In this document: one piece after another, positions 1 through 21,866 of the stretch
Layout: the number at the start of each line of letters is the position of its first letter
Position numbering within the stretch: the first letter of the stretch is position 1
Program-made: the position numbers and the translations under genes
Notes under the pieces: model-generated
Databases searched by the model: none
The model's input: only the letters and a program-made list of their open reading frames with translations
What the model was told of the DNA's origin: nothing
Source: Flagellimonas oceani
GTDB lineage: Bacteria > Bacteroidota > Bacteroidia > Flavobacteriales > Flavobacteriaceae
NCBI RefSeq assembly: GCF_011068285.1
Contig: NZ_CP049616.1
Span: forward strand, 786,501-850,500
Reading direction: 5' to 3'
DNA: 64,000 nucleotides

Positions 1-2
1 TA

Positions 3-1469
3 GATAAAAAATCCAAAAATGATATTGGGGAATATCCATTGTATATAAGAATTCGTGGAAGGAATTCCAATGGGAAATACTCTGAATCCTCAATTTATAG
101 TGGAGTTGATTTATCCGAAAAACATTTTAGGAAAGGAGGGTTATCTCCAAGGACTCCAAATTATACGGACAAACAAAGGATAATCAACGGAATATTAGAT
201 GATTTACAAAGAATCATTAGTGAATCTATCGAAGATGGTTTTGAACCGAACCCGAAATTTATCAAAAGAGAATTCGAAGAAAGAAAGAAGTTCCGTGAAC
301 TGAAAACCCCTCAAATCCAATCCTTTTGGAAATCCTTTGATGAATATATTGATACAAAGAAAAATACCTCTTACGGGTATCGTAAAACCATCACCACTTT
401 AGTAAATCACTTAAAGGAATTTGAAGAATACATTGGTAGGAAAATCTCATTTGAATATGTGGTATTAAAAACCATCTTATTTCAAAGTGAGTTCAATGAT
501 TATATGTGGAATCAAAAGAACATTTCAAATTCCTACCTCAACAAACTCTATGATAATCTAAGTGGTTTTTTGTATTTCTCACATCAAATGGGATATATCA
601 ATAGGAAACCACGGTTGAAGTTGGAATCAACTATTGAGAAAGATGAAAAGGTCTATCTGAGAACAGAAGAAGTTATTAAACTCTTTAATTCAAAGAAATG
701 GGATTATGATGAAACGAAGGAACAAGAATTACGAAAGAACCCTCATATTATTATCATTGAAGAACCTTTGAAAGGAACACGGAGTAAGGAGTTCGGTGGA
801 GTTCTAAAGGTTACGAACTGGGAACTGGTAAAGTATATTTTCTTATTTCAAAACTCTATTGGTTGTAGGATTGGGGATATTCCCCATTTCAAATTGAGTA
901 ACATGGACTTTGACCCGAAAACTCAAATATTCAGTTGGGTTCAACAAAAAACAAACAAAAAGGTAAGTGTTCCCCTTAATGATATTGGGGGATTCATATT
1001 CAGAAAGTTCAGTAGTGGGAAATCAAAAACACAAACCCTTTTTCCAAAAATTTCCCAACAGAAATTCAATAAACAACTAAAATATCTCTTAAAGGATTTG
1101 GGATTCAATAGAATGATTACCAAACCAAAAATGATAGGGTCCAAAGTGGTGGATACAGAGGAAAAACCACTTTGGGAGTTAATATCATCCCATGGTGGAA
1201 GGAGAGGTTTTGTAAAGAATTCCATTGATTTGGGGAATATGGATTATCAAACGATAATGAAACTCTCTGGACATAAAACCTTCTCCGAATTTTCAAAATA
1301 CATTTCGGTAACTACTACCGATACCCTTAAAATTAGGGGGTTATATAAATCTGATAAGAAAACCCAAGAAGATAAGTTTGAACAATTCAAAAAAGAGTTT
1401 TCCAAGTTAAGTGAGGAAAACAAAGATGTCATATTGGGTGTTATGAGAGGTTTTAATAACTCGTATTGA
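3..1469 (+). CDS. Tyrosine recombinase/integrase, 5' end cut by window edge
   Basis: A site-specific tyrosine recombinase that probably integrates and excises the GpC-depleted island. The frame stays open to the window edge, and the first ATG-like codon (a TTG at 39) lies inside the N-terminal arm-binding motif (PLYIRIRGRN), so the real start is upstream. About 475 residues are visible: arm-type DNA-binding region (first 50), SAM-like core-binding region, then the catalytic domain. That domain has Arg in GCRIGDI, a Lys in QQKTNKK, HGGRR (the H-x-x-R box), SGHKTFSEF and the Tyr in SKYISV. It contains no alanine: the usual H-T-A-R-R-S-F-A-T reads HGGRRGFVK. The stop lies 2 nt from the convergent HTH gene. 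Family assignment is firm; the target site is inferred. Confidence 0.9.
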   Translation, partial: DKKSKNDIGEYPLYIRIRGRNSNGKYSESSIYSGVDLSEKHFRKGGLSPRTPNYTDKQRIINGILDDLQRIISESIEDGFEPNPKFIKREFEERKKFRELKTPQIQSFWKSFDEYIDTKKNTSYGYRKTITTLVNHLKEFEEYIGRKISFEYVVLKTILFQSEFNDYMWNQKNISNSYLNKLYDNLSGFLYFSHQMGYINRKPRLKLESTIEKDEKVYLRTEEVIKLFNSKKWDYDETKEQELRKNPHIIIIEEPLKGTRSKEFGGVLKVTNWELVKYIFLFQNSIGCRIGDIPHFKLSNMDFDPKTQIFSWVQQKTNKKVSVPLNDIGGFIFRKFSSGKSKTQTLFPKISQQKFNKQLKYLLKDLGFNRMITKPKMIGSKVVDTEEKPLWELISSHGGRRGFVKNSIDLGNMDYQTIMKLSGHKTFSEFSKYISVTTTDTLKIRGLYKSDKKTQEDKFEQFKKEFSKLSEENKDVILGVMRGFNNSY

Positions 1470-1471
1470 AT

Positions 1472-1741
1472 CTACTCAATCAACTTTCTTTTAACCATCT
1501 TCTTCATTTCCTCACTTTTGAGTTGTTCGTATTCAATCACCCTTTTCTCCAGCAGGAAACCGATTACCGAAACTGAATCTACCAACCTTCGGTTTTTCCA
1601 TTTCACACCCCTAATCTTTCCCTCTTTAAGGTATTTGAAAACGGTTCTTTTACTCACGTTCAATTTTTCTGAACAATCATCCACCGATATCCATCGATAG
1701 AATTCCAGACCTTCAATCTGTTCTTTAAATGGATTCTCCAT
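1472..1741 (-). CDS. Small HTH DNA-binding protein, excisionase-like
   Basis: An 89-residue protein with a helix-turn-helix of the MerR/excisionase type (SVDDCSEKLNVSKRTVFKYL followed by the wing-like RGVKWKNRRLVD). I start it at the ATG at 1741 (MENPFKEQ); an upstream in-frame TTG at 1753 would overlap the preceding gene. Facing and almost touching the integrase gene, it is placed like a recombination directionality factor or a regulator of the integrase. It contains no alanine. Function beyond DNA binding is inferred from fold and position. It resembles in type, but is not a copy of, the HTH gene interrupted by the IS at 17923-19259. Confidence 0.7.
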   Translation of the reverse strand: MENPFKEQIEGLEFYRWISVDDCSEKLNVSKRTVFKYLKEGKIRGVKWKNRRLVDSVSVIGFLLEKRVIEYEQLKSEEMKKMVKRKLIE

Positions 1742-1743
1742 AA

Positions 1744-2274
1744 TCAAATCCAATTTGTCTTTTTCAAACGTGAGATTTCATCCAATATATATCTCTGTTG
1801 AGGTACTGTAAGGTTCATTGTATTTTTCCAATTTACTTCCCAACTTCCCTTTTTTATCTCACATACCTTCACCAAGAAATCTCCACTACCATCATAGACA
1901 TTGATACCACGTTCTTCGTTTACAAAACCAAGTAGTTTCTGATTATCACTTTCCCCAATCCATTGGAACGGTACAATTGAATTGTATCTCTTATTGATTG
2001 AATCCAACTTTTGGTTCAACCTCAACGAGTAGGATGGAAGAAGTTGTTTCCAATCCTTGAACCTATTCAGTAACGAGGTGATTTCCCCATAACTCATATC
2101 GGTGTTCTCACGTAGGTATCTAATCATTCCATCCCTTGAACTATCCTCACACCATCCCCTCTCCAAAATGTGATTCCAGACAATCAGATCGGAGTGTTTG
2201 AGTATTCCCTTTATTCCTGTTTCTCTAAGGATTCCAATCAACCCCTCAATTTCATATTCATTTATTTTATCCAT
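1744..2274 (-). CDS. Hypothetical protein, same operon as the HTH gene
   Basis: A 176-residue soluble protein that I do not recognise. I start it at ATG 2274 (MDKINEYEIEGLIGIL); a GTG at 2316 would add 14 residues. The N-terminal half is helical with charged segments; the C-terminal half is richer in strand-forming residues (GINVYDGSGDFLVKVCEIKKGSWEVNW). There is no signal peptide or membrane segment. It lies 2 nt upstream of the small HTH gene on the same strand, so the two are probably co-transcribed and may act together in regulating the element. It has no alanine, as with its neighbours. Confidence 0.6.
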   Translation of the reverse strand: MDKINEYEIEGLIGILRETGIKGILKHSDLIVWNHILERGWCEDSSRDGMIRYLRENTDMSYGEITSLLNRFKDWKQLLPSYSLRLNQKLDSINKRYNSIVPFQWIGESDNQKLLGFVNEERGINVYDGSGDFLVKVCEIKKGSWEVNWKNTMNLTVPQQRYILDEISRLKKTNWI

Positions 2275-2382
2275 AATTCTTTTCTTATTGGTTCTTTGGA
2301 AGTGTTGTTGATTCACACTTCATCTATAAGTATCATGTATTTTTATTTTTGAAAAAGTTCACATAGGGAAAAAACCAGTTCC

Positions 2383-2448
2383 GATATATAAAAAGGTCCT
2401 TTAAGGTTTTTAATGAAGGGGGGTGGGGGTACTTTTACGAGAAATTAT
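2383..2448 (+). repeat. Leader repeat copy 1, upstream of hsdM
   Basis: About 66 bp that recurs at 11387-11452. The last 22 bases are identical in both copies (2427-2448 and 11431-11452) and the rest is similar, including the CCTTTAAGG core and a G-rich run. Copy 1 ends 77 nt before the hsdM start and copy 2 ends 82 nt before the DUF285-type lipoprotein start. Inferred: a shared promoter or operator/leader module that co-regulates the R-M operon and the surface protein. Confidence 0.6.
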
Positions 2449-2525
2449 CCCAAGAATCAAGTAATGATGTTTCTTGTTTTTTATTCTTTAGGTAATGACT
2501 ATTTTTAAAACCTAACCAGAATTAT

Positions 2526-4247
2526 ATGTCCAACCATAACGAAATTTCCTCATTTATTTGGAACGTCTGTGATGATGTTCTCAGAGGATTGTTCAAACAA
2601 CATGAGTACGGTGATGTCATTCTTCCCTTTGTGGTTCTGAGAAGATTGGACTGTGTCCTTGAAGGAAAGAAGGATGATATCATCAGGATTCATGAGGAAT
2701 ACAAGGATAAGTTTGAGGATACCTCTCGAATCATCCATTCCAAACTCAACCTAAAGTTTTCCAATTACTCTCGATATGATTTGAATCGGTTGAAACAAGA
2801 ACCATCCAAACTCTCTGAGAACATTTACGATTACCTCAGTAGTTTCTCAACCAATGTTCAGGATATTATCCAAAACTTTGGGTTACAGAAACACATTGAC
2901 AAACTCGATTCCAATGATAAACTCTACATCCTCATTGAGAAGTTTACCGAGGTGAACCTTCATCCTAATATGGTGGATAACCACACTATGGGACAAATCT
3001 TTGAGGAACTCCTTCGTAAGTTCTCTGAGATGTCCAACGAAACAAGTGGGGAACACTATACCCCCCGTGATATTGTTCGATTGTTGGTTTCCTTGGTTCT
3101 TTCACCTGATAAGGAGAAACTTTCCCAACCGGGTAAGATTGTTTCAATCTATGACCCGTGTTGTGGTACCGGTGGTATGTTGACCATAGGGAAGGATTAT
3201 ATACAGGAAAATATAAGTTCCGATGTTGATGTGAACCTCTTTGGCCAAGAACTCAACCCCCAAACCTATTCCATCTGTAAATCCGATTTCTTGATTACCG
3301 ATGAAGAACCCAACAACATCAAATTGGGTTCTACCCTCACCAATGACCAATATAGTGATAGGGGTAGGAAGTTTGATTATATGATTACCAACCCTCCGTT
3401 CGGGGTAAGTTGGAAATCGGAGAAGAAAAAGATTGAAAACGAATCGAAACTTTCCCAAGAAGAAGGAAGTAGATTCTTTGTGGGAACACCCCGTAGTAGT
3501 GATGGTTCCCTGTTGTTTCTACAACACATGATTTCCAAAATGGAAACCCAAGGTTCACGAATTGGGGTAGTGTTCAATGGTTCTCCTTTGTTCACAGGGG
3601 ATAGTGGTAGTGGGGAATCTGAAATCCGTAGATGGATAATTGAAAACGATTGGTTGGAGGGTGTTGTTTCTCTACCTGACCAATTGTTCTTTAATACTGG
3701 AATATCAACCTACATTTGGATTGTCACCAACAAAAAGAAACCTCACCGAAAAGGAAAGGTTCAACTCATTGATGGTTCTTCTCTCTATAAAACCATGAAG
3801 AAATCCTTGGGAAGTAAGAGGAAGTTTGTGGATGAAGAACAAAAGATTCACATTGTGGAACTCTATAACCGTTTTGAAGAATCTGAAATCTCCAAGATAT
3901 ATCCCAATGAGTTCTTCGGTTACACTAAGGTAAGGATTGAACAACCCATAATTGAAAATGGGGTAGTCAAAAGGGATAGAAGTGGAAACCCCAAACCTGA
4001 TACAAAGTTGAGGGATTATGAACGAGTTCCTTTAACTGAAGATATTCAAGAATATTTTGATAGAGAGGTGAAACCTCACTTACCTAATTCATGGATTGAT
4101 TGGGATAATAATAAGGTGGGGTATGAAATCAACTTCACCAAGTATTTCTATAAATACAAACCTTTAAGGAGTTTGAAAGAGATTACCAATGATTTATTGG
4201 AATTGGAAAAGGAGACTGAGTCATTACTAAAAGAGATAGTGGATTGA
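2526..4247 (+). CDS. hsdM: Type I restriction-modification methyltransferase subunit, alanine-free
   Basis: N6-adenine methyltransferase subunit of a type I R-M complex (M2S modifies, R2M2S restricts). At 573 residues it shows the HsdM N-terminal helical domain (from FIWNVCDDVLRGLFKQHEYG), the AdoMet motif I at about 209-218 (YDPCCGTGGM) and catalytic motif IV NPPFG at about 289. The C-terminal tail is typical for the family. It opens an operon of four tightly linked genes and its TGA overlaps the next ATG by one base. Remarkably, the whole protein contains no alanine, where the family usually carries dozens, yet all motifs survive. This follows from the GpC exclusion of the island. Confidence 0.95.
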   Translation: MSNHNEISSFIWNVCDDVLRGLFKQHEYGDVILPFVVLRRLDCVLEGKKDDIIRIHEEYKDKFEDTSRIIHSKLNLKFSNYSRYDLNRLKQEPSKLSENIYDYLSSFSTNVQDIIQNFGLQKHIDKLDSNDKLYILIEKFTEVNLHPNMVDNHTMGQIFEELLRKFSEMSNETSGEHYTPRDIVRLLVSLVLSPDKEKLSQPGKIVSIYDPCCGTGGMLTIGKDYIQENISSDVDVNLFGQELNPQTYSICKSDFLITDEEPNNIKLGSTLTNDQYSDRGRKFDYMITNPPFGVSWKSEKKKIENESKLSQEEGSRFFVGTPRSSDGSLLFLQHMISKMETQGSRIGVVFNGSPLFTGDSGSGESEIRRWIIENDWLEGVVSLPDQLFFNTGISTYIWIVTNKKKPHRKGKVQLIDGSSLYKTMKKSLGSKRKFVDEEQKIHIVELYNRFEESEISKIYPNEFFGYTKVRIEQPIIENGVVKRDRSGNPKPDTKLRDYERVPLTEDIQEYFDREVKPHLPNSWIDWDNNKVGYEINFTKYFYKYKPLRSLKEITNDLLELEKETESLLKEIVD

Positions 4248-5176
4248 TGAAACTCTATAAATCAAAATCTGGAGAATTAAATAGGGTTAAAGTGAATCCG
4301 TTTAAGTTAGAGAAGGATATTCAAAATATTGTAGAGTCCAATCTTACTACATTATTTGATTTGGAGTTTATCAAGTCTGAGTTGTCCTTTGGAAGTTTCA
4401 GATTTGATACACTTTGTTTTGATAGTGAAACGAACTCCTTTGTAATCATAGAATACAAAAAAGGTTCAAGTTATTCGGTAATTGACCAAGGATATACATA
4501 CCTCTCCCTTTTGTTGAACAATAAATCTGATTTCATTCTTGAATACAATGAAACACTTGGGAAAAGTGTTAAAAGGGATGAAATAGATTGGTCACAGTCT
4601 AAAGTGATATTCATTTCCCCAAACTTTAACGATTACCAAAAGAACTCTGTGAATTTCAAGAACCTTCCATTTGAACTATGGGAGATTACACGATATACAG
4701 ATGATTCTATTGGTTTGAGTAAAATATCTACTGAATCCAACGTGGATATCAATTCTACTATCCCTGATGTTGGTAAGGGAGGTGTTGTGGATAAAGTGAG
4801 AAAGGAAGTAGTAAGATACGATGAAGATTACCATTTGAATAAAAGTAAAAATAGACCCGAATTTGTAATAGAACTTTATCGAAAAGTTAAAGAGAGAATC
4901 CTTGAATTAGGTGATAGTATTGAAGTTCGATTTGGTAAACAAACCATAGGGTTCAGACAAAATAGAGTGTTCACCGATTTGATAATTTATAACAAAGGTG
5001 TTGGTGTTGTTTTGAACCTAAAAAAGGGTGAATTGAAAGACCCACTAAATAAGACAGAGGATTTGAGTGAGAAGGGACATTGGGGTAGTGGAGATTATAG
5101 AATATGGTTGAAGAAGGAGGATGATTTGGAATACACCATTAGTTTAGTGAAACAATCCTATGAAAATCAACTTTAA
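4247..5176 (+). CDS. PD-(D/E)XK-type protein with DUF5655-like C-terminus in the hsd operon
   Basis: A 309-residue protein between hsdM and hsdS. The first 120 residues have a restriction-nuclease-like fold signature: a D in FRFDTLCFD followed by IIEYKKG (the D...E-x-K pattern). The C-terminal ~110 residues (from about PEFVIELYRKVKERI to the end) resemble the DUF5655 domain. Such proteins are frequent passengers of type I R-M operons in Bacteroidota; their role is not settled. The start is the ATG at 4247, sharing one base with the hsdM stop; its stop shares one base with the hsdS start, so translation is probably coupled. No alanine is present. Nuclease activity is inferred from the motif only. 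Confidence 0.75.
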   Translation: MKLYKSKSGELNRVKVNPFKLEKDIQNIVESNLTTLFDLEFIKSELSFGSFRFDTLCFDSETNSFVIIEYKKGSSYSVIDQGYTYLSLLLNNKSDFILEYNETLGKSVKRDEIDWSQSKVIFISPNFNDYQKNSVNFKNLPFELWEITRYTDDSIGLSKISTESNVDINSTIPDVGKGGVVDKVRKEVVRYDEDYHLNKSKNRPEFVIELYRKVKERILELGDSIEVRFGKQTIGFRQNRVFTDLIIYNKGVGVVLNLKKGELKDPLNKTEDLSEKGHWGSGDYRIWLKKEDDLEYTISLVKQSYENQL

Positions 5177-6516
5177 TGGATAGATACGATTCATATAAGG
5201 ATTCGGGGGTTGAATGGATAGATAAAATCCCATCAGAATGGGAAATTTCACGATTGAGATTCACGGGAGATTTGTATGGGGGATTATCAGGAAAATCGGG
5301 GGATGATTTCAAACAAGACAATAACCCCAACAACAAACCATATATACCCTATACTAACATTTTCAATAACACCTATATCTCAAAAGAACATTTCGACTAT
5401 GTGGTAATCGATGAAGGTGAGAATCAGAATTTAGTAAGAAAGTTTGATTTATTTTTTTTAATGAGTTCTGAAACTCATGAAGATTTGGGTAAACCTTGTA
5501 TTCTAATTGAAGATGTGGACGAACTTTATCTTAATAGTTTTTGTAAAGGATTAAGAGTTACAGATTCAAGTATAAACCCTGTATTCTTGAATTATCAGTT
5601 ATTGGGACAGGTTCATAAAGAACTTATTTCCGTGGAAGGTAGGGGATTTACAAGAATCAATCTTCGACAGGATAGATTGAAAGATACTCCAATATTCATT
5701 CCACCATTACATCAGCAAAACCAAATCGTCTCCTTCCTCGATACCAAAACCTCCCTGATTGATTCCCTGATTGAGAAAACCCAACGAAAGATTGAGTTAA
5801 TCAAAGAACAACGAACCTCTTTGATCAATGAAGTAGTTACCAAAGGATTGAATCCCAATGTGGAAATGAAAGACAGTGGGGTGGAATGGATTGGTGAGAT
5901 TCCAAGTCATTGGGTAACTACCAAACTTGGTCTTTACACAACTAAAGTTGGTTCAGGTTCTACTCCACGGGGTGGGTCAGAAATTTACGTTGAGACAGGT
6001 ATTCCATTTATAAGAAGTCAAAATGTCCATTTTGATGGTTTGAAGTTGGATAATGTTTCTTTTATTGAAAATGATGTCCATGACTCTATGAAAGGTTCTG
6101 TTGTGGTTAAGAACGATGTTTTATTAAATATTACTGGTGGTTCAATTGGAAGGTGTTGTGTTGTAAATATTGATGGGGAAATGAATGTTAACCAACATGT
6201 CAGTATTATAAGGACTAAAGAAAAACTTCTGAACTATTTTTTGAATTACATAATAAGTTGTGATGTTGGACAAAGTCAGGTTAAATATAATTTAACTGGT
6301 GGTAATAGAGAAGGTTTAACTATTGAGGGTATCAAAGATTTTCAAATTAGTTTACCACCCCTATCAGAACAAAAGGAAATCGTTGAATATCTCGATAATG
6401 AAATCCAACTCATTGATACTACTGTTTCAAATGAGGAAAAGAGAATAGAACTACTCAAAGAATACCGTCAATCCCTCATTTCAGAGGTGGTAACGGGTAA
6501 AATCAAAGTTTCATAG
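5176..6516 (+). CDS. hsdS: Type I restriction-modification specificity subunit, alanine-free
   Basis: DNA-recognition subunit that sets the bipartite target of both methylation and restriction. The 446 residues contain two target-recognition domains, each opened by the same signature (KDSGVEWIDKIPSEWE at about 8-23 and KDSGVEWIGEIPSHW at about 234-248). Each is followed by a helical spacer with LPPLSEQKEIVEYLD-type sequence. ATG overlaps the preceding stop (TAATG). There is no alanine, although this protein is normally fast-evolving and alanine-containing. The recognition sequence cannot be read from the protein. It is the natural partner of the hsdM at 2526 and the hsdR at 6519. Confidence 0.93.
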   Translation: MDRYDSYKDSGVEWIDKIPSEWEISRLRFTGDLYGGLSGKSGDDFKQDNNPNNKPYIPYTNIFNNTYISKEHFDYVVIDEGENQNLVRKFDLFFLMSSETHEDLGKPCILIEDVDELYLNSFCKGLRVTDSSINPVFLNYQLLGQVHKELISVEGRGFTRINLRQDRLKDTPIFIPPLHQQNQIVSFLDTKTSLIDSLIEKTQRKIELIKEQRTSLINEVVTKGLNPNVEMKDSGVEWIGEIPSHWVTTKLGLYTTKVGSGSTPRGGSEIYVETGIPFIRSQNVHFDGLKLDNVSFIENDVHDSMKGSVVVKNDVLLNITGGSIGRCCVVNIDGEMNVNQHVSIIRTKEKLLNYFLNYIISCDVGQSQVKYNLTGGNREGLTIEGIKDFQISLPPLSEQKEIVEYLDNEIQLIDTTVSNEEKRIELLKEYRQSLISEVVTGKIKVS

Positions 6517-6518
6517 GT

Positions 6519-9518: not shown

Positions 9519-9563
9519 TAGAGGTTCTAAATTTTACCAAACTAATTATTGAAGTATTTGACA

Positions 9564-10259: not shown

Positions 10260-10272
10260 AAATATTGTGAAA

Positions 10273-12977: not shown

Positions 12978-13065
12978 TTTTTCAAAATAGTATTTTCAGC
13001 AATCCATTTAATCGGTAATTTTTTTGTTACCATTTAATTCACCTCCTTTTTAATCTTAATATAAA

Positions 13066-13130
13066 AGAAAACAAGGAAAGATTGATTCAATTGTTTATCC
13101 CTAAACCTGAATTGTTGAATCAGTTGAGGG
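13066..13130 (+). pseudogene. Duplicated 3' tail of hsdR
   Basis: This 65-bp piece matches the end of hsdR (9449-9513) with about five mismatches and encodes the same C-terminal residues (ERLIQLFIPKPELLNQLR against ERLIQLFISKPELLNQLR). It runs on past the place where hsdR stops and is not part of any convincing gene. Inferred: the scar of a second hsdR end, left when the glycosylase-to-DUF285 block (about 9.5-13.06 kb) was inserted or exchanged next to the R-M operon. Confidence 0.75.
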
Positions 13131-13145
13131 ATTTAAGGAAGTATT

Positions 13146-14456: not shown

Positions 14457-14558
14457 TGAAAAGTTTTTTGTAAGACAATCAAACTTAAAAATAATTAATT
14501 CTAATCGAGAAGTCTTTGTTTTATTCTAATTCTGAGGAACTAAGTAGTTTGATAATAC

Positions 14559-14576
14559 TGTCCCATTTTAATTCAC
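14559..14576. repeat. 18-bp repeat shared with 11317-11334
   Basis: TGTCCCATTTTAATTCAC occurs identically here and at 11317-11334. A partial relative (CATTTAATTCACCTCC, then TTTTTAATCTTAA) lies at about 13031-13058, just before the hsdR-tail scar. The copies bracket accessory modules of the island. They may be recombination footprints or operator sites. Confidence 0.5.
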
Positions 14577-14676
14577 AATAAAAAATAATACACCCGTTTC
14601 ATCTAATAATAACGTAAATACTTGTAAGTCAGTCATTTGTGTTGTATTTTTATTTTGAGATTAAAAATGTAACACC

Positions 14677-15282
14677 ATGAAGGTCAAATACAACAGAACC
14701 TCAACTCTACAACAAGAAGGTGAAAGATTCAAGTTGGACAAAGAGGAATACGATTTAACCATTTTTGATAAGGGAGTATCGGGTAAGATACCATTTTCCA
14801 AAAGAGAAGGTGGTAGGAAACTCACCCATTTAGTTGAGAACGGTGAGGTCAATGAGGTTGTGGTAGAGGAACTCTCACGTTTGGGTAGAAATACCATCGA
14901 TGTCCTAACCACTCTTAAAACCTTTGAGGATAACGGGGTAAATGTAGTTGTCCGGGGGATGGGTAATCTCCAAAGTAAGGTGAACGGTAAAAAGAACCCT
15001 ATTTGGAACTTGATTACATCCGTTATGAGTTCCCTTTATGAACTGGAGAGGGAAAACATCTTGGAGAGAACCGAGATGGGAAGAAAGGTATATGTGATGA
15101 ACGGTGGTAAGTTGGGTAGGAAGGTTGGTTCGATTGAAACAAGAAAGGATTTTTTGAAGAAGGACAAGACCCAAAAAATAATCTCTCTATTGGAAAAGGG
15201 TAAATCCGTCAGGGATATCAGTAGTAGGTTGAGTGTCTCCACCACAACGGTGGTCAAGGTTCGTAAATATGTTGAGGTATGA
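14677..15282 (+). CDS. Serine recombinase (resolvase/invertase type), alanine-free
   Basis: A 201-residue small serine recombinase. Catalytic Ser9 is in YNRTST (family: Y-x-R-V-S-T); the active-site arginine region is ELSRLGRN (about 66-73); ELERENILERTEMGR matches the E-R...I-x-E-R-x-x-x-G helix. The C-terminal HTH (KSVRDISSRLSVSTTTVVKV) binds DNA. It cuts and rejoins DNA at resolution or inversion sites, and on this island may resolve dimers or move modules. The 18-bp repeat lies 100 bp upstream. No alanine: Y-A-R is YNR. Its TGA overlaps the ATG of a 46-residue ORF. Confidence 0.88.
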   Translation: MKVKYNRTSTLQQEGERFKLDKEEYDLTIFDKGVSGKIPFSKREGGRKLTHLVENGEVNEVVVEELSRLGRNTIDVLTTLKTFEDNGVNVVVRGMGNLQSKVNGKKNPIWNLITSVMSSLYELERENILERTEMGRKVYVMNGGKLGRKVGSIETRKDFLKKDKTQKIISLLEKGKSVRDISSRLSVSTTTVVKVRKYVEV

Positions 15283-15419
15283 AAACTATATCCAAGAAAC
15301 GGAAGAAGGAACTTCGTGAAGAATATGAAAGGATAAATGGGTTGAGGTATGTGAGAGGGTTGAAAAAAGAACCCTCTGTAAGTTGGTTTGAATGGGTTGG
15401 ATATAGGGACAATCAATGA
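15279..15419 (+). CDS. Small basic ORF coupled to the serine recombinase
   Basis: A 46-codon ORF beginning in an ATGA overlap with the recombinase stop, a layout typical of translational coupling. The product is strongly basic at the N-terminus (MKTISKKRKKELREEYERI) and ends in an aromatic stretch (SVSWFEWVGY). I recognise no family. Possible roles are an accessory DNA-binding peptide or a non-functional leftover. It has no alanine. Confidence 0.45.
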   Translation: MKTISKKRKKELREEYERINGLRYVRGLKKEPSVSWFEWVGYRDNQ

Positions 15420-15649
15420 ACCATCTCCAACATATCTTGCAGGGTGGTTATGTACCGATCCCAAACAGAGTATATCAATCTTTCATTCCTTTTCATTTTT
15501 GTACTCACATACTCCCTAAAAGGAAAAAACCCCACAATCGATAGTGAGGGACTTTCCTTGTAAACCATAAAATTATTTCAACCCAATTGAGAGGGATGGG
15601 TTCAACCTATTCTCTCCATATACTTTGACTGTAATAATTAAACATCATT

Positions 15650-15790
15650 TTAATCCATTGGAAATTGAGAGAATGTTTCTAACTCTTTCTCTTTAATCTC
15701 ATTCAGTTCCTTCTTTATTTCATCTGAAAGAAGTTTTACAACCTTTTGAATTATTTGATTTCTTTTAGATTTTAGGATTAAGTCTCTCAT
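15650..15790 (-). CDS. Small charged ORF downstream of the 424-residue protein
   Basis: A 46-codon ORF (ATG 15790) overlapping the last 26 bases of the preceding minus-strand gene. It is rich in Lys, Glu and Leu (IIQKVVKLLSDEIKKELNEI), so probably a single long helix or coiled coil. Such overlapping small partners can be antitoxin-like or structural. No family is recognised. The assignment rests on overlap and on the absence of alanine, as elsewhere in the island. Confidence 0.4.
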   Translation of the reverse strand: MRDLILKSKRNQIIQKVVKLLSDEIKKELNEIKEKELETFSQFPMD

Positions 15791-17039
15791 AAATTTCCTC
15801 CAATCTTGATTCGGAACTCCACGAAAACTTGTCAAATTCCTCTTTTTCTTTACTCAATTGTTGTTCTGTAATATCAGGATTAAAATAGAGTATATCGGTC
15901 TTTTTGTTCCACCACCATATATCAACGATATCTTGTTTTGTAACATTTTCTTTTAGGTAGTATTTCTTAATCCATAATCCGTTTTCTAATGTTATCCAAT
16001 TTTGTCCTCTCTTTGATAACAATATATCCCTCATTCTCTCTCTGTTTAATGTGTCATATCCGATACATCCATCATTACCTTCTTCTTCAACTATGATTGG
16101 AACAAATATATTTTCGTAAGTTTCTCTACACTCATCCCATGTTATCGGTTCATAATTTTTGAAGAAATCCCAAAATCCATATGGTGAGTAGTTATACATG
16201 AGAGAATCTGTAAAATCATTAGGGTTGTATTGTTTAAGATATTCATCGTACAAATCCTTAATGTGTTTAATAGTTGTAATCTCAACATCATTTGAAAATC
16301 CATCATAGGAATAACCGTTAGATAAACTGAACTCTCCGTTGATTTCATATAGGTGAATTCTCATTTCTCCATAACCACCCAACTTACTCCATTTTGTAAG
16401 TAAACGATAACAATCTTGATATTTCTCAAACACCTCTTTACTAATCTCTTTTTGTTTATTCCATTTATATGATTCATAATCAATGTTTGAATGATCTATC
16501 GTATATGAGAAATCAATCACATATCCTTTATAGAAGATGTAATTAAAGAAATTACTTAACTCCCCTAAACACCGTTGATACCCATCTGTATTGTAGATTA
16601 GTTTTCCGAGTTTGGTGTTTCCATTGATATAGTTGTTATTTCGTGTTGGTTTCTTTCTAATGTTTTTATCCTTACCAACAACCTCAACACAATCCAGAAG
16701 TCCACTTTCTAATTCTATTTTATATTTTTTAGAAAGGTCCCAATCCATTCTTCTTGGATAGTTAGAGTTTATCTCTTGAAGTTTATTTGATAGGGAATCT
16801 TCATCAACCTTAACAAGGATATCTATGTTGTTGTCCATCAGAGTTTGGTATTCCGAACCACCTACTGAAAAGAACATTAGTTTCTTCCCTTGTTCAGTTT
16901 TTTTAATTCCTTTTTTCATGACAGAAGTTCTCAACTTCTTGGATAATCCTTCATTCAAATGATAGATATCACGATTTAAGATGTTTTGAAATTTACTTCG
17001 TGGTTCTCTTGTTCCCACATACAAATTTTGATTTTCCAT
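15765..17039 (-). CDS. Hypothetical 424-residue protein
   Basis: A large soluble protein with ATG start at 17039 (MENQNLYVGTREPRSKFQN). The N-terminal third contains LMFFSVGGSEYQTLMDNNIDILVKV, whose 'GGSEY ... NNDIDILV' layout is loosely like a nucleotidyltransferase G-S...D-x-D core (D in NIDILVKV). That resemblance is weak. The rest is rich in aromatic and Asn residues, with no signal peptide or membrane span. No alanine in 424 residues. It is probably co-transcribed with the 46-residue ORF that overlaps its 3' end. Function unknown; a toxin or defence role is possible only by context. Confidence 0.65.
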   Translation of the reverse strand: MENQNLYVGTREPRSKFQNILNRDIYHLNEGLSKKLRTSVMKKGIKKTEQGKKLMFFSVGGSEYQTLMDNNIDILVKVDEDSLSNKLQEINSNYPRRMDWDLSKKYKIELESGLLDCVEVVGKDKNIRKKPTRNNNYINGNTKLGKLIYNTDGYQRCLGELSNFFNYIFYKGYVIDFSYTIDHSNIDYESYKWNKQKEISKEVFEKYQDCYRLLTKWSKLGGYGEMRIHLYEINGEFSLSNGYSYDGFSNDVEITTIKHIKDLYDEYLKQYNPNDFTDSLMYNYSPYGFWDFFKNYEPITWDECRETYENIFVPIIVEEEGNDGCIGYDTLNRERMRDILLSKRGQNWITLENGLWIKKYYLKENVTKQDIVDIWWWNKKTDILYFNPDITEQQLSKEKEEFDKFSWSSESRLEEIYERLNPKI

Positions 17040-17210
17040 AATACTTTGTTTTAAATTTTAATATTGATTCTCACTTCTTTAACCAGGGGGAGAACCTCTC
17101 CCCCAATCACAATACTAAAATACGGGATGTGGGTGGGGTGCTAATTAGATGATAAATTGTTTCCCACCCAAATAGATTGGAATCCATATCTTTGTGAAAA
17201 AGGTTTGGGT

Positions 17211-17888
17211 ATGGAGTATCAGAGTAAGGGAAGGAAGTTCTTTATAGATTATCTCCCGAAGGTGGTTTTCAATGGGTTCACAAAGGAGGAACGAAGTACT
17301 TACAGTAAGTATCGTCACCATCATCTGAAATACCACAGACAAATACAAGAAGTTGAGGAATTGGAATCTCAATTGGAGGAATTGAAATCTTTGATCGGTG
17401 AAAAGAAATCATCCATTAAAAGATATCAAAAGGAGTTGTTCAAACACTTTGATAAGGTGAAACATCTTGGTAAGGAACTGGATTTCAATTCATGGGTTGA
17501 GGTAGAGTGGAGAAACAAAAAGAAATGTAAAGAGAATCCCAACCTTGAACCGAACAAAAGGGTGGTTGTGATGATTCAATATAAACTTGGAACTGATTAT
17601 AAGAAGAAGAAAATTTCTTGTGGTCCTTGGGAAGAAATACCTGAAATACTCAATCAATACAAAAACAGGAACAAGGATTACTCCACGGTGGGTGAAGATG
17701 ATTTAAGATTGGATATACAATGGGGTTTCGTTGATGGTTATACCAAATACCATTTGTACAAAAACGGGTATCTTGAATTTCATAATACACCCCATAACCT
17801 GAAAGGTGTGATTGAGTGGTTTAATCAGTATGATGAAGAATATGGGAAAAGAAAGAGTATGGAGTGGTCTTACATGGATTACAATTGA
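17211..17888 (+). CDS. Hypothetical coiled-coil protein
   Basis: A 225-residue protein; I use ATG 17211 (MEYQSKGRKFFIDYLPKV) rather than the TTG at 17157. Residues about 35-85 are a coiled coil (EVEELESQLEELKSLIGEKK then KKSSIKRYQKELFKHF). The C-terminal half is probably an alpha/beta domain (GTDYKKKKISCGPWEEIPEI ... YHLYKNGYLEFHNTP). No known family, no signal peptide, no alanine. Its last 10 bases overlap, convergently, the end of the HTH gene split by the neighbouring IS. Confidence 0.6.
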   Translation: MEYQSKGRKFFIDYLPKVVFNGFTKEERSTYSKYRHHHLKYHRQIQEVEELESQLEELKSLIGEKKSSIKRYQKELFKHFDKVKHLGKELDFNSWVEVEWRNKKKCKENPNLEPNKRVVVMIQYKLGTDYKKKKISCGPWEEIPEILNQYKNRNKDYSTVGEDDLRLDIQWGFVDGYTKYHLYKNGYLEFHNTPHNLKGVIEWFNQYDEEYGKRKSMEWSYMDYN

Positions 17889-17922
17889 TTACCCATCTTT
17901 GATTCTTCCCATTCCATCAAAT

Positions 17923-19259
17923 GGGTCTGTAAATTAAACTCTGTCCTTTGATTCAATTCCTTTGGGGCTAGCCCCAAAGGAATTGGTGTTTAATATCAAG
18001 GGTATCCTCTCCCCAAATTTAATATAAAGTTGTTGAACCGTTAGGCTCCAATTGTGCAAAGGGCTGGTCCATTTTTTTTCGATGTTCTTTGTGGCCAGGT
18101 ATACCAGTTTGAGCAGGGCCATGTCATTGGTGAACGCCCCTTTGGTTTTGGTGACCTTACGCACCTGACGGTGGAACCCTTCTACTGCATTGGTGGTATA
18201 GATTATTTTTCTGATGGGTTCCGTATATTGGAAGTACTGTGATAGCTGCTCCCAATTACGCTGCCAGCTTTCGATGACCACGGGGTATTTGTCGCCCCAT
18301 TTCTCTTCCAAATCGATAAGGGCATCCTCCGCAACTTCCTTGCTGGTGGCACGATAAACAAGTTTTAGGTCTCGCATGAACTCTTTTTGATCCTTAGAGG
18401 CAATGTACTTCAGCGAGTTGCGTATTTGATGTACGATGCAGAGCTGCACCTGTGCTTTCGGGAATACGCTCAATATCGCATCGGTAAAGCCTCTGAGGTT
18501 GTCCGTACAGGCGATCAGGATATCTTTAAGTCCACGGTTGTTCAGGTCTGTAAGTACTTGCAACCAAAAATTGGCTCCTTCGCTCTCGGAAATGTACATG
18601 CCCAATATTTCTTTGCGACCTTCCTTGTTGATGCCCAGAATATTGTAAAGGGCCTTATGGGTTATCCTACCATCCTCTTTGACCTTGTAATGCATCGCAT
18701 CGAGCCACACGATACAATAGAGCGGCTCTAATGGGCGGTTCTGCCAGGCTTTCACGTCAGGTATGATCTTATCGGTTATTTGGCTCAGAACGGTATGGGA
18801 GATATCGGTATCGTACATTTCTTTGATATGGGAGGAAATGTCTCGGTAACTCATCCCAAGGCCGTAAAGGCCAATGATCTTGTCCGATAGATTGTCGGCC
18901 AGAATAGTTTGCCGCTTTTTTACCAGTTCGGGCTCAAAGCTGCTTTGCCTGTCCTGTGGCGTATCGATATCAAAAGTGCCAAAGCCGCTTTTGATCGTCT
19001 TCTTACCCTTGCCATTGCGCTTGTTACCTTGGTTACGTTGAGACTCGTCCAGATGACCTTCCATCTCTGCCTCAAGGGCCTTTTCAATAACATTCTTCAG
19101 CATTGGGGCGAATGCGCCTCCTTTGCCGAAAAGATTCTTGCCGGACATAAACTGGTCAAGTACCTTTTTCTCGAATTCTGTCTGTTCTTCTTTTCTCATG
19201 ATTCTGTCTGAATAAAATTAGCACTTAAATTTATTTCAGACAGAGTTCAGTTTACACCC
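17923..19259. mobile_element. IS256-family insertion sequence with target duplication
   Basis: About 1.34 kb with imperfect terminal inverted repeats starting GGGT, then (CT)GTAAA...AACTCTGTC, at 17923-17946 and 19237-19259. It is flanked by a direct repeat TCCATCAAAT (17913-17922 and 19260-19269), so the target duplication is 9-10 bp depending on where the last base is placed. It carries one transposase. Its DNA is full of GC dinucleotides and its protein of alanine, in sharp contrast to the island, so it arrived recently. Confidence 0.9.
17934..19199 (-). CDS. IS256-family transposase
   Basis: A 421-residue DDE transposase of the IS256/Mutator-like class. The zinc/HTH-type N-terminus holds KAEMEGHLDE-like residues. 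The catalytic core shows D in VWLDAMHYKV, D in ACTDNLRGF and E in TTNAVEGFHRQVRK, with the C/D(2)H-like CIVHQIRNS. It fills the element and reads inward from the right end. Alanine is frequent (for example EKALEAEMEG), unlike in every flanking gene. Full length is typical for the family, so it is probably active. Confidence 0.95.
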   Translation of the reverse strand: MRKEEQTEFEKKVLDQFMSGKNLFGKGGAFAPMLKNVIEKALEAEMEGHLDESQRNQGNKRNGKGKKTIKSGFGTFDIDTPQDRQSSFEPELVKKRQTILADNLSDKIIGLYGLGMSYRDISSHIKEMYDTDISHTVLSQITDKIIPDVKAWQNRPLEPLYCIVWLDAMHYKVKEDGRITHKALYNILGINKEGRKEILGMYISESEGANFWLQVLTDLNNRGLKDILIACTDNLRGFTDAILSVFPKAQVQLCIVHQIRNSLKYIASKDQKEFMRDLKLVYRATSKEVAEDALIDLEEKWGDKYPVVIESWQRNWEQLSQYFQYTEPIRKIIYTTNAVEGFHRQVRKVTKTKGAFTNDMALLKLVYLATKNIEKKWTSPLHNWSLTVQQLYIKFGERIPLILNTNSFGASPKGIESKDRV

Positions 19260-19416
19260 TCCATCAAATCACTCTTTCTGATATACTTCTTATTGGGTGA
19301 TACCCTAATCAAAGGTAAATCATATTTTTTTACCCAATTCTCAATGGTCTTTCTACCCACACCGTACATTTTTTCAAGTTCTTGTTTTGTAATTCTTTTT
19401 TCCATTTCCATCTTTA

Positions 19417-19917
19417 TTAAATAAACGAGTTCATATCCACCTCGACACCGTATCCTTGACCATCATAATCAAATGATGGGTTGAAATCCAATCCTTTGAA
19501 TTTCTTCTTCAAATGGGTGATGATATTTTTGATGGTATCCATTTCACCCCACCCCTTGTCCTCAATCCCCATGATATCCTTCATGGTGGATGGTATGAAC
19601 GATAAAATGTTATCTGAGGTAATAACGGAAATGAACTTTATACCATCCACGTTCACCTTTCCCTCATTGAGTTCCAAACTGGAAAGTTTCTTGTAAATAT
19701 CTTCCTCTGAATCCTCTATATCAAATTCATCTTCATCATCATATCCCATTTCTCTGAGGATTTCATCCAAATCAAAGAGTTCATCTTCATCCTCTGAAGG
19801 GATTTCCACTTCTTTTTTTTCCCATTCATACAATGGGACACCACTAAGTTCTTTTAATCGGATTTTCATTTGTTGAGGTGTTATACCCTCTGTTGTCAGT
19901 TTTATTCCATCTATCAT
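19417..19917 (-). CDS. Acidic hypothetical protein
   Basis: A 166-residue, very acidic protein (a run of Glu/Asp around EIPSEDEDELFDLDEI and DDEDEFDIEDSEEDIY) with a C-terminal alpha/beta part. It sits between the interrupted HTH gene (11 nt downstream) and the HUH-like gene upstream, all on the minus strand, so it was probably in one transcript with them. Acidic proteins on mobile elements are sometimes DNA mimics; that is speculation here. No alanine. Confidence 0.6.
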   Translation of the reverse strand: MIDGIKLTTEGITPQQMKIRLKELSGVPLYEWEKKEVEIPSEDEDELFDLDEILREMGYDDEDEFDIEDSEEDIYKKLSSLELNEGKVNVDGIKFISVITSDNILSFIPSTMKDIMGIEDKGWGEMDTIKNIITHLKKKFKGLDFNPSFDYDGQGYGVEVDMNSFI

Positions 19918-19962
19918 AATTAGTTCCTCTTTTTGTATAAATACCCTTGTTCCAATATTTCT

Positions 19963-20415
19963 TTAAATCAAGGGTTTTTCAATCATTTCCTTTTTGTCCA
20001 TGTACCTCATGAACTCAACTTCATCATGGATGGGGTGTACATCAACCTCACCAAACGTTCCCTTGCAAGTTTTAAGGGTGTCCAATCCCCAATCTTTTTC
20101 TTCCCATGTTGTTCCACCTATGAACCGAGATAACCCGTTGTAGAGGTTCTCCTGATTGTTGTACTTGATAAGGAGGTGGGTATGGTACTTACCTCCTTTG
20201 TTGGTGTCACTTTCAATGACGTAGTAAGTGGTTATATCATCCTTCTTCTTCAATTTTCTGTGAAGGGTTTTTACTTGTTTTTTCAATAGTTCCCTGTTTG
20301 GATTGGTGATTCTGTTGTTAGCAGATTTATCAATCTTTCTGAACATTACTCCCATTGATTTCATAATTGTTATTTGAGTTATTGGTAATGGAATAATGGA
20401 ATACCATTTACCCAT
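19963..20415 (-). CDS. HUH-type replication/mobilization-like protein
   Basis: A 150-residue protein with an HUH-like signature: KYHTHLLIKY (H-x-H after a hydrophobic strand) and downstream Tyr in FMRYMDKKE. Small rolling-circle Rep and transposase-type HUH nucleases share this order, in which the two His bind metal and Tyr attacks DNA. The N-terminus is basic (KLHRKLKKKDD). ATG 20415 is used; an internal ATG (MKSMGVMFRK, 20364) is possible. One alanine (GCT near 20331). If real, it could nick an origin for replication or transfer of the island. Moderate confidence from motifs alone. Confidence 0.5.
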   Translation of the reverse strand: MGKWYSIIPLPITQITIMKSMGVMFRKIDKSANNRITNPNRELLKKQVKTLHRKLKKKDDITTYYVIESDTNKGGKYHTHLLIKYNNQENLYNGLSRFIGGTTWEEKDWGLDTLKTCKGTFGEVDVHPIHDEVEFMRYMDKKEMIEKPLI

Positions 20416-20620
20416 TACCGGTATTGATGTTCGTTAAACTTAGAAATCGTTAGTACACTTTCAACCACTCTCATGGTACTGTATTACAGTATTTACCTCT
20501 TTCTTACAATAAATATTGGAGAGAAGGGGAAAACGTAAATGTTTTCGGTAAAAAGTGGAAACTTTAACGGTTTTATAAAAAAAAGGGAATTTGGTACCAG
20601 GATGATTAAAAGGGATTTAA

Positions 20621-20848
20621 TCAAGGAAGGTTGTCAAAAAAATAGAATGCAAAATATATTAGTAATATCATAGCAATGACTCCTAATATTCCAAGAATTC
20701 CAAAACCGAGTAAATCAGAGAAATCACCAATAAATGAAACCCAAACTATAACGTAAATTATGACGAAGAGGATGATATATATTAAATTTTTATAACACCC
20801 CTTGTTTTCATTTTCCTTCTGGTTTCTATTTTTCTCCGTGTCTTCCAA
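20621..20848 (-). CDS. Small two-span membrane protein
   Basis: A 75-codon ORF with a charged N-terminus (EDTEKNRNQKENENKG) and two hydrophobic segments (NLIYIILFVIIYVIVWVSFI and a second rich in Gly, Leu and Ile). No ATG is available; TTG 20848 is the likeliest start. The two alanines in the second span come from two of the island's rare GCs. Family unknown; could be a phage- or plasmid-type accessory membrane protein. Confidence 0.4.
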   Translation of the reverse strand: MEDTEKNRNQKENENKGCYKNLIYIILFVIIYVIVWVSFIGDFSDLLGFGILGILGVIAMILLIYFAFYFFDNLP

Positions 20849-20988
20849 GTGATTTGTTATCAGTATTTTTACAAGTGTTAGATATGGTTAATCAAGTTTT
20901 TGAGATAAATGAGGGTTTATCCTTTGGATATTGAATTTACGAATTATTATAATTAACTTTTCTCCACCATAACTTAAAGAATCAGTTG

Positions 20989-21723
20989 ATGAAACAAATT
21001 CTATTAATCATACCATTTATCATTTTAGGGTGCAAGGAAAAAGGGATAACGGATGAAGAATTTAATTCAATTTTAAATCAAAATAAGGACAATTTTGTTT
21101 TTATGTCCTTCTACCCAAATATGGGATTTGAAATGGGAGAAAGATTAGTGCAGAAAGAGTTGGAAAGAGGAAATTTAACACAAAAAGGTAATGATATCAT
21201 ATACACGTTGGAGTACAATAATTCTAGTTATGATTTGATATTAATGGAATCAAGTTTTAATGAGGATTATATAGGGTTGTACTACAGTAAGAAAAATCCA
21301 GGAGATTTTAGAATCTGGTATGATGGTGATTTAAACGGAATTCTTTCAATTTATGGTGAGAAATATGATGATGTTACTGATTTGAATGGAAACACTCCAA
21401 TAGGTACACCTCAATCATATAGGGAGGATTCTTATGTTTTAAAGAAAAAATATAATATCACAGGAGAAAAGAATAACGTGATTTATATAGATACTTGGAC
21501 CAATCGTGACAATGGAATGATTTACCAACAGGATAAGAATGGTAATATCATAAAATCTTCATACACGATTTCAATCTATCACTTCACGGAGGATAGTTTT
21601 GAAAAGTATTTGAAGGAATTAAGTAGAGAGAAAGACAACAAAGAGGTTCAAGAATTAGAGAAAAAACAGGAGTTGGATAAAGAAAGGAAAATAAGGAATG
21701 AGAAAACCATTGATGATATTTAA
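20989..21723 (+). CDS. Hypothetical lipoprotein
   Basis: A 244-residue exported lipoprotein, start ATG 20989 with signal MKQILLIIPFIILGC (lipobox Cys15). The mature part looks mostly beta (DLILMESSFNEDYIGLYYSK, GKNNVIYIDTWTNRDNGMIY) and ends in a strongly charged helix (ELEKKQELDKERKIRNEK). No known domain. It is the last gene of the GpC-depleted island and has no alanine. A perfect palindrome (TGGGGAGTA-T-TACTCCCCA, 21761-21779) follows the stop and may act as a terminator stem, though it lacks a following T run. Confidence 0.65.
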   Translation: MKQILLIIPFIILGCKEKGITDEEFNSILNQNKDNFVFMSFYPNMGFEMGERLVQKELERGNLTQKGNDIIYTLEYNNSSYDLILMESSFNEDYIGLYYSKKNPGDFRIWYDGDLNGILSIYGEKYDDVTDLNGNTPIGTPQSYREDSYVLKKKYNITGEKNNVIYIDTWTNRDNGMIYQQDKNGNIIKSSYTISIYHFTEDSFEKYLKELSREKDNKEVQELEKKQELDKERKIRNEKTIDDI

Positions 21724-21852
21724 TCTGATAAATGAAGATTCCGTTTTGAATAAATAACTATGGGGAGTATTACTCCCCAAAAAAGGTAATATCTTAAGGA
21801 TTATTGTTGTGCATACCCTATAAAATAAGGGGTTTTACAGGGGAGTGTGAAT

Positions 21853-21866
21853 CCTGCCACCCCGAC
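21853..21866 (+). other. Attachment-site core, left end of ICE1 (tRNA-Pro 3'-like)
   Basis: CCTGCCACCCCGAC occurs here and at 58858-58871, each time about 220 bp upstream of an integrase gene. With the preceding GAAT it reads like the T-arm/acceptor 3' end of a Bacteroidota tRNA-Pro (acceptor strand CACCCCG plus discriminator). No complete tRNA can be folded here, so this is an element junction. It also marks the sharp right edge of the GpC-depleted region. Confidence 0.7.

What the first reader, a model, noticed from the sequence alone, without database searches (positions are those of the whole stretch)
1..21852. A 21.9-kb island that excludes the dinucleotide GpC and, as a result, alanine
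Seen: outside the IS, about 16 GC dinucleotides in some 20.5 kb. With G and C each near 18 %, several hundred would be expected. Depletion holds in spacers, on both strands, across codon junctions, and for GGC, AGC, TGC and CGC as well as GCN. CG, GG and CC are common. About 6,150 residues contain about five alanines. Frames are intact and motifs rewritten, so this looks like long selection or a sustained process on DNA, not decay. Because GC is its own reverse complement, the rule fits a double-stranded palindromic target. Ideas: (a) escape from a host enzyme that recognises or modifies GpC; (b) the element itself, or a partner, attacks GpC DNA and tells self from non-self by lacking the target; (c) GpC-specific modification followed by deamination over long residence. 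I know of no described element of this kind.
Basis: partly seen in the sequence, partly recalled or inferred. Interest (0 to 1): 0.98.

Follow-up and report, generated by a model that had tools for sequence, protein, structure and literature searches.

The report
Mobile DNA element purged of GC
A 22-kb mobile element in a bacterium, likely of the marine genus Flagellimonas, has lost almost every GC dinucleotide and with it almost every alanine in its proteins, as have its relatives in several other Bacteroidota, most likely because an unidentified GC-attacking DNA defence would destroy copies that still carry it.

Summary
The element keeps 16 GpC where shuffles give about 606, and 3 alanines in 5961 residues; the IS inside it, the flanking DNA and sampled host DNA are normal. 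It lies between repeats of a tRNA-Pro end.

It is not alone. Of 120 listed integrase homologs 85 have no alanine; 13 of 13 close integrase loci lie in GpC-depleted DNA; a second integrase lineage with the same small serine recombinase is also GpC-free. Homologs diverge without creating GpC (0 in L087's hsdM and hsdR, about 62 expected), so the constraint is ongoing. Replacements show no general transition excess, against deamination. GATC and other Type II words are depleted too, unevenly; 7 of 18 GpC-normal serine-recombinase loci nearly lack GATC.

Best reading: restriction-like selection during transfer, with GpC itself a main target. The GpC enzyme and the transfer route are unidentified, and stretches of 11 flavophage records are GpC-normal, which counts against a community-wide GpC restriction.

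The parts
1..21866 (.). GpC-purged integrative element (left end just outside the window, at the 3' end of tRNA-Pro)
39..1469 (+). tyrosine recombinase (integrase), 0 Ala; true start just left of the window
   Evidence: PF00589 E 4.1e-7; 141 homologs, 120 listed
1472..1753 (-). excisionase-like small HTH protein
   Evidence: HTH_17 and TIGR01764, both below their cut-offs
1744..2316 (-). 190-aa protein of unknown function paired with the excisionase-like gene; homologs in L024, L029, L032, L088, L107
2526..4247 (+). HsdM, Type I methyltransferase (cargo)
   Evidence: N6_Mtase 1.6e-64; 90% identical in L087's genome
4244..5176 (+). DUF5655 protein, defence candidate PDC-S18 (cargo)
   Evidence: 94 of 120 listed homologs have no Ala
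5176..6516 (+). HsdS (cargo)
   Evidence: Methylase_S
6519..9518 (+). HsdR (cargo)
   Evidence: HSDR_N, SWI2_SNF2
9549..10259 (+). unknown protein; GSFNP motif recalls the uracil-DNA-glycosylase superfamily (recalled, not tested)
   Evidence: no Pfam, PHROGs or PADLOC match, no meaningful NCBIfam or PDB match
10273..11154 (-). MORN-repeat protein (cargo)
   Evidence: MORN_2
11535..12977 (+). DUF285 repeat protein (cargo), flanked by repeated motifs
   Evidence: repeats
13146..14456 (-). 436-aa protein of unknown function
   Evidence: no Pfam match; phrog_3532, unknown function
14677..15282 (+). small serine recombinase, 0 Ala
   Evidence: Resolvase 3.8e-19; 2606 homologs, of the 120 listed 119 have 0 Ala
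15765..17039 (-). 424-aa protein of unknown function
17157..17888 (+). 243-aa protein of unknown function; weak PHROGs matches to virion structural (E 0.0018) and tape measure (E 0.0059) families over 45-55 residues
17923..19259 (-). insertion sequence (Mutator-type transposase 17934-19199), GpC 1.075: likely a recent insert
19417..19917 (-). 166-aa protein of unknown function
19963..20415 (-). Rep-like protein (predicted)
   Evidence: REP_ORF2-G2P 22.4 bits, below its cut-off of 27.8; homolog in L027
20986..21723 (+). 245-aa protein of unknown function
21849..21866 (+). right att core, identical to the 3' end of tRNA-Pro at genome 786360-786377

Best explanation
This is a 22-kb integrated mobile element that has lost nearly every GpC (16 left where about 606 are expected) and hence alanine, most likely because an unidentified enzyme, predicted to attack unmodified GpC in DNA, would destroy copies that carry it when they enter new cells. 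Shown: the island is bounded by att repeats at a tRNA; a family of Bacteroidota elements shares the trait; new GpC does not appear between diverged copies; cargo or an IS with normal GpC is found inside some such elements; other Type II words (GATC, CCNGG, GGNCC, CTAG, CATG) are depleted along with GpC or, in sibling elements, without it. Inferred: the elements pass between hosts as DNA exposed to restriction, and losing the targets is their protection; GpC is the target of one such activity. The enzyme, its host and the transfer route are not identified.
For: Depth and breadth: 85 of 120 listed integrase homologs have no Ala; on a tree of 122 integrases the state 'at most one Ala' needs 13 changes against a shuffled mean of 27.2, 0 of 500 as low. 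13 of 13 close integrase loci (12 contigs) are GpC-depleted; the 21 distant ones have no comparable island, the longest low segment being 1.8 kb at 0.38. A second integrase lineage, L087 (3 GpC against 492) and L086 (0 against 187), is GpC-free too. Ongoing: hsdM+hsdR of window and L087 differ at 828 sites; L087 has 0 GpC, the window 2, null means 23.2+39.1. All six single-step replacements occur, Ts fraction 57 of 146 against background 0.41 (C) and 0.58 (G). GpC is lost at alanine, synonymous, junction and spacer positions. Restriction signature: pooled islands GATC 0.08, CTAG 0.26, CATG 0.39; GpC-normal siblings lack GATC, for example 0 of about 52 in L102. L106 has GpC depleted but GATC normal, so the two pressures are separable. 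Cargo with near-normal GpC in L024 and the IS show that fresh DNA enters.
Against: No GpC-cutting enzyme was found; apart from CviJI/M.CviPI-type enzymes (recalled) I know of none with so short a target. Stretches of 11 marine flavophage records have GpC 0.80-1.74 and the flank of the element is normal, so a community-wide GpC restriction should have marked them unless they are protected. The transfer route is unknown: pattern scans of IMG/VR found no member, and the phage records gave only matches of 24-30% identity. The integrase family is rare in sampled genomes: 1 of 395 in the order, the own one. The purge of other words is uneven: GATC is not below 0.3 in L023 and is 0.23 in L087, and the own host is itself mildly low in GATC (0.62), CATG (0.69) and CTAG (0.53). 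Regions of the sibling loci were chosen after seeing GATC gaps.
Confidence: 0.45

Rival explanations
1. A partner weapon: a helper phage or a rival mobile element destroys DNA at GpC, and this element survives and spreads with it because it lacks the target, as a phage satellite might.
For: The element looks satellite-like: tRNA integrase, excisionase-like gene, Rep-like protein, defence cargo, no transfer or capsid gene recognised. Sampled flavophages and the flank do not avoid GpC, so the pressure is peculiar to this guild. PLE satellites encode the sequence-specific nickase NixI against their phage (PMC12409358, passages read). One island protein has a weak virion-protein match (E 0.0018).
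Against: No helper is known, pattern scans of viral contigs found no member, and the loss of standard Type II words points to ordinary restriction.
Confidence: 0.22
2. No 2-bp enzyme exists: many ordinary Type II enzymes whose sites contain GC (GGCC, GCGC, GCNGC, AGCT and others) together purge GpC.
For: GGCC, GCNGC, GCGC and CGCG are scarcer among residual GpC than in hosts; many Type II words are depleted.
Against: Non-palindromic NGCN contexts are gone as well, and AGCT and TGCA are not scarcer than the rest among residual GpC. L102 and L095 lack GATC and are short of GGCC, CCNGG or GCNGC, yet their GpC stays at 0.60-1.23 per 2 kb.
Confidence: 0.15
3. The element's own recombinase acts at GC dinucleotides, so GpC inside the element would cause damaging self-rearrangement.
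For: Among 12 GpC-depleted loci not chosen by the serine recombinase (the window and 11 found by the integrase), 9 carry it; of the three others L028 is cut by its contig end and L032 overlaps L034. Serine recombinases cut at a central dinucleotide (recalled).
Against: Relatives of the same recombinase sit in 18 loci with normal GpC; the trait spans recombinases only 31-34% identical to the window's; it does not explain GATC and the other words.
Confidence: 0.1
4. GpC methylation in a host followed by deamination removed GpC by mutation.
For: CpG is low as well (0.50). Against relative L143, AC is the commonest replacement (27 of 103).
Against: Overall no excess of GT and AC (57 of 146 with L141, 36 of 72 with L143, 9 of 16 with L106); edges coincide with att sites while the host is normal; new GpC fails to appear in diverging copies.
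Confidence: 0.05

Closest known systems
Restriction-site avoidance in plasmids (Shaw et al. 2023, PMC10359461; abstract and passages read)
   Same: Loss of Type II targets under selection, stronger in small broad-range elements
   Different: Their targets are 4-6 bp, with no extra avoidance of 4-bp palindromes in plasmid genes; the word dinucleotide does not occur in that text. Here a 2-bp word is nearly absent and alanine is lost from the proteins
tRNA-borne genomic islands and integrative elements with a tyrosine integrase (recalled kind)
   Same: Integrase next to a tRNA 3' end, att repeats, excisionase-like gene, variable defence cargo
   Different: GpC, GATC and other words depleted; small serine recombinase and Rep-like protein; no transfer gene recognised
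PLE phage satellites of Vibrio (PMC12409358, passages read)
   Same: Small integrated element with integrase and replication gene; one PLE protein (NixI) nicks phage DNA at specific sequences
   Different: No helper phage, no NixI-like gene and no packaging shown here
CviJI / M.CviPI, short GC-centred recognition in chlorella viruses (recalled)
   Same: Enzymes whose target is RGCY or GC
   Different: No homolog was sought in these hosts

Membership tests
Restriction-site avoidance by a mobile element | Known Type II words rarer than expected in the element and less so in the host | tested here: met
   GATC 0.07-0.09 in islands against 0.62-0.85 in hosts; CCNGG and GGNCC low in many islands. 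Four host controls show no GATC or CCNGG value below 0.3, though CTAG, GGWCC or other words are low in some
Restriction-site avoidance by a mobile element | The avoided word is the target of a known restriction enzyme of its hosts | not tested
   Enzymes for GATC and others are recalled; none was sought in the hosts, and no GpC enzyme is identified
tRNA integrative element | Integrase at one end, tRNA gene and direct att repeats | tested here: met
   repeats of 23, 23, 18 and 16 bp also in L024, L025, L023, L027
tRNA integrative element | Excision as a circle | not testable with these tools
   needs reads or PCR
Phage satellite | Packaging or induction by a helper phage | not testable with these tools
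   pattern scans of viral contigs found no member
Phage satellite | Encodes capsid, terminase or packaging-redirecting genes (only some satellites do; recalled) | tested here: inconclusive
   none by Pfam on the island ORFs; PHROGs, run on nine of them, gave a weak virion structural match for 17157-17888 (E 0.0018)
Conjugative element | Relaxase and transfer genes | tested here: not met
   none among island ORFs by Pfam; the Rep-like protein was not tested as a relaxase
Deamination signature | GC replaced mainly by GT and AC | tested here: not met
   57 of 146, 36 of 72 and 9 of 16 single-step replacements

The most novel reading that the evidence does not exclude
An undescribed DNA-destroying system in Bacteroidota recognises the bare dinucleotide GpC, the shortest palindrome possible, and has driven a whole family of mobile elements to give up GpC and the amino acid alanine.
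Probability: 0.4. Interest if true: 0.96.

Novelty: new variant of a known kind. Interest (0 to 1): 0.92.

Why it matters
It shows natural proteins (integrases, Type I restriction subunits, serine recombinases) kept almost free of alanine across deep divergence, and it points to a strong, unidentified selective force on DNA. Proteins of 300-500 residues with no alanine at all are a simple way to find such elements in metagenomes; a low content alone is not enough, since two outgroup integrases from GpC-normal DNA have only 6 and 7 alanines. The GpC-free DNA itself is the natural probe for the missing enzyme. My literature searches (open PMC papers only, listings seen) showed no description of such an element.

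Tried and rejected
Rejected or disfavoured: deamination; AT-rich decay (frames intact; constraint ongoing); a host-wide bias; the serine recombinase as sole cause; RGCY as the true target (RGCY is 98 of 437 residual GpC against 1402 of 5250 in hosts, only slightly scarcer); the marine Charybdis elements (PMC12324425: abstract, outline and searched passages) as the same thing, since their described gene content and hosts differ. Partial islands were first read as purges in progress; argues for regain in L106 and L088: relative to the neighbouring host the alanine position is more reduced (L106 3.8 against 59.1 per kb, L088 14.2 against 45.7) than the other codon positions (L106 3.3 against 23.5 and 3.6 against 33.0; L088 5.5 against 10.5 and 6.9 against 12.8), though spacers are as reduced as alanine positions in L106 (2.8 against 45.1). 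L034 and L108 were not compared with their own hosts. Led nowhere: viral-contig scans, PDB search of the 236-aa protein (one match at E 0.99), literature on GpC enzymes (passages of PMC5487053). Structure prediction was not used.
Full report
Observation. The island holds 9 GpC against 536.6 expected in 1-17922 and 7 against 69.1 in 19260-21852, while the IS at 17923-19259 (74 against 68.8) and the rest of the window (0.875) are normal. Shuffling gives a mean of 606 with a minimum of 535 in 1000 shuffles, against 16 seen; redrawing synonymous codons with the flank's usage for the same alanine-poor proteins gives a mean of 345 (minimum of 200 redraws 306) against 10 seen, so synonymous sites are purged as well as alanine codons. 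Seventeen ORFs hold 3 alanines in 5961 residues; 30 ORFs of the flank hold 4.9% alanine. Eight 20-kb samples of the same genome and 304 kb around and including the window show no second region of this kind, apart from a run of N; most of the 4.6-Mb genome was not scanned.

What it is. The island lies between a tRNA-Pro gene and a copy of its 3' end (att core at genome 786360-786377 and window 21849-21866). It has a tyrosine integrase, an excisionase-like protein, a small serine recombinase, a weak match to a Rep protein and cargo: a Type I restriction set with a DUF5655 defence candidate between hsdM and hsdS, MORN and DUF285 proteins and several unknowns. Pfam recognised no transfer or capsid gene; PHROGs gave one weak virion-protein match (17157-17888, E 0.0018). 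The closest named integrase is from Flagellimonas baculiformis, 99% identical, so the host is likely of that genus; the genome itself is unnamed.

A family. Of the 141 integrase homologs 120 were listed; 85 have no alanine, 7 have one and 28 have 2-18. Of 2606 serine recombinase homologs 120 were listed, all at least 84% identical; 119 have no alanine and one has one. Of 5709 DUF5655 homologs 120 were listed; 94 have none, the rest 1-8. As a yardstick, two outgroup integrases from GpC-normal DNA have 6 and 7 alanines in about 390 residues, so this protein type is alanine-poor to begin with. On a FastTree of 117 of the integrases (three short ones left out) and five others the state 'at most one alanine' needs 13 changes against a shuffled mean of 27.2; rows rich in alanine such as P0020 sit among alanine-free ones, so the trait looks old with repeated losses, though the place of long branches is unsure. 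A scan of genome contigs gave 34 loci: the 13 with at least 45% identity (12 contigs; L032 and L034 overlap) all lie in GpC-depleted DNA (best segments 0.00-0.31), the 21 with at most 33% have no comparable island (longest low segment 1.8 kb at 0.38). Record titles name Roseivirga, Polaribacter, Crocinitomicaceae, Belliella buryatensis, Flammeovirgaceae and others; one MAG is labelled Sphingomonadales and may be misbinned. In 395 genomes of the order only the own genome has this integrase at E 1e-70.

Other integrases, same trait. A search of 397 genomes of the family with the serine recombinase gave 32 with matches at E 1e-20. I took longer stretches from 18 of these besides the own genome: mostly the best matches, and three (L106-L108) because their short loci looked low in GpC. 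Two loci with a different tyrosine integrase are GpC-free: L087 (1784-18670; 3 against 492), with the same Type I cargo, and L086 (0 against 187, cut by the contig end). So the trait is not tied to one integrase.

Other words are depleted too. In pooled islands GATC is 0.08 of expectation (host pool 0.78), CTAG 0.26 (0.63), CATG 0.39 (0.72), CCAG/CTGG 0.36 (0.91) and GAC/GTC 0.47 (0.91), while AATT, TTAA and TCGA are near normal. It is uneven: GATC is not low in L023 and L106 and is 0.23 in L087. Of 18 serine-recombinase loci with normal GpC (five from one genome, two from another), 7 have a region almost without GATC: single-strand values about 0 of 32 (L095), 0 of 22 (L096), 0 of 30 (L097), 1 of 38 (L099), 0 of 18 (L101), 0 of 52 (L102) and 5 of 34 (L107); the other 11 show no such region (one search counts both strands, and its limits were set). 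Some also lack CCNGG, GGNCC, GGCC or CATG, on small expectations. L101 has no flank to compare. L106 shows the reverse: GpC depleted, GATC normal. These are words of common Type II enzymes (recalled), so restriction is the natural cause of that part.

Selection, not mutation. Where relative L141 (its hsdM locus has GpC 0.74) has GC, the GpC-free copies have GT 30, GG 28, AC 27, TC 26, GA 20, CC 15; transitions are 57 of 146, no more than among other changed C (0.41) and G (0.58). With a second relative (L143, 0.60) it is 36 of 72, with AC the commonest; with L106 9 of 16; with L088 2 of 5. The window and L087 are both counted and are related, and relatives are 45-71% identical, so multiple changes blur this. 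Diverged GpC-free homologs create almost none: hsdM and hsdR of the window and L087 differ at 828 sites; L087 has 0 GpC (the window 2) where random placement gives 23.2 and 39.1; integrase window/L022 418 differences, 0 against 28.8. In six of seven comparisons the observed count lies below all 1000 simulations; in the seventh (L023/L025 serine-recombinase region, 0 against a mean of 6.7) it equals the minimum.

Partial islands. In L106 residual GpC is spread evenly over codon positions (3.8, 3.3, 3.6 per kb) although its host has most at alanine positions (59.1 against 23.5 and 33.0); in L088 too the alanine position is the most reduced relative to its host. This looks like GpC coming back after release, not a purge under way, though in L106 spacers are as reduced as alanine positions. 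Near-normal GpC cargo inside L024 and an alanine-rich gene in L026 show that fresh DNA enters.

What causes it. BLAST clustering of ORFs from 17 GpC-depleted and 12 other loci found only the integrase group (15 of 17, 2 of 12) and the serine recombinase (14 of 17, 10 of 12) near-universal. These loci were found by one or the other gene, so part of this is by construction; of the 12 depleted loci not chosen by the recombinase 9 carry it. Several loci are cut by contig ends. No common nuclease is visible. The best reading is restriction-like killing of unmodified copies during transfer, with one activity that recognises GpC itself. Against it: stretches of 11 marine flavophage records have GpC 0.80-1.74 (some are near-copies, and only 8-40 kb of each was read) and the flank of the element is normal, so the pressure is peculiar to this guild or the others are protected. 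A helper phage or rival element with a GpC nuclease is therefore the main rival.

Novelty. Target avoidance in plasmids is known (PMC10359461, abstract and passages read) but for words of 4-6 bp. I found no report of a GpC-free or alanine-free element in the searches; subscription papers and most preprints are not covered.

Noticed in passing
window 17923-19259: An insertion sequence with normal GpC sits inside the purged element: likely a recent arrival.
   Followed up: partly
window 11317-11334, 14559-14576, variant near 13026; 2426-2448 and 11430-11452; 9439-9513 and 13056-13130: Repeated motifs flank cargo genes, and a copy of the hsdR 3' end lies behind the DUF285 gene: cargo looks like exchangeable cassettes, perhaps moved by the serine recombinase or by homologous recombination.
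   Followed up: partly
Its GpC is normal.
   Followed up: no
L095 8000-20000, L097 6000-20000, L099 8000-20000, L102 2000-20000: GpC-normal elements with a related serine recombinase that lack GATC almost completely.
   Followed up: partly
L097 7058, L107 6788, L108 16963: Large serine recombinases next to pieces of a ComM-like gene (names recalled): relatives that seem to insert in comM instead of a tRNA.
   Followed up: no
window 9549-10259; L087 12933-13721: Two cargo proteins with motifs that recall uracil-DNA glycosylases (recalled).
   Followed up: partly
window 1-21840; L087 1784-18670: The non-palindromic word CGAC/GTCG is also nearly absent (3 of 39 and 0 of 37, and 3 of 21 in L108); in the pooled other islands it is not (32 against 26 expected).
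   Followed up: no
genome 657481-662516: A run of N in the host contig.
   Followed up: no
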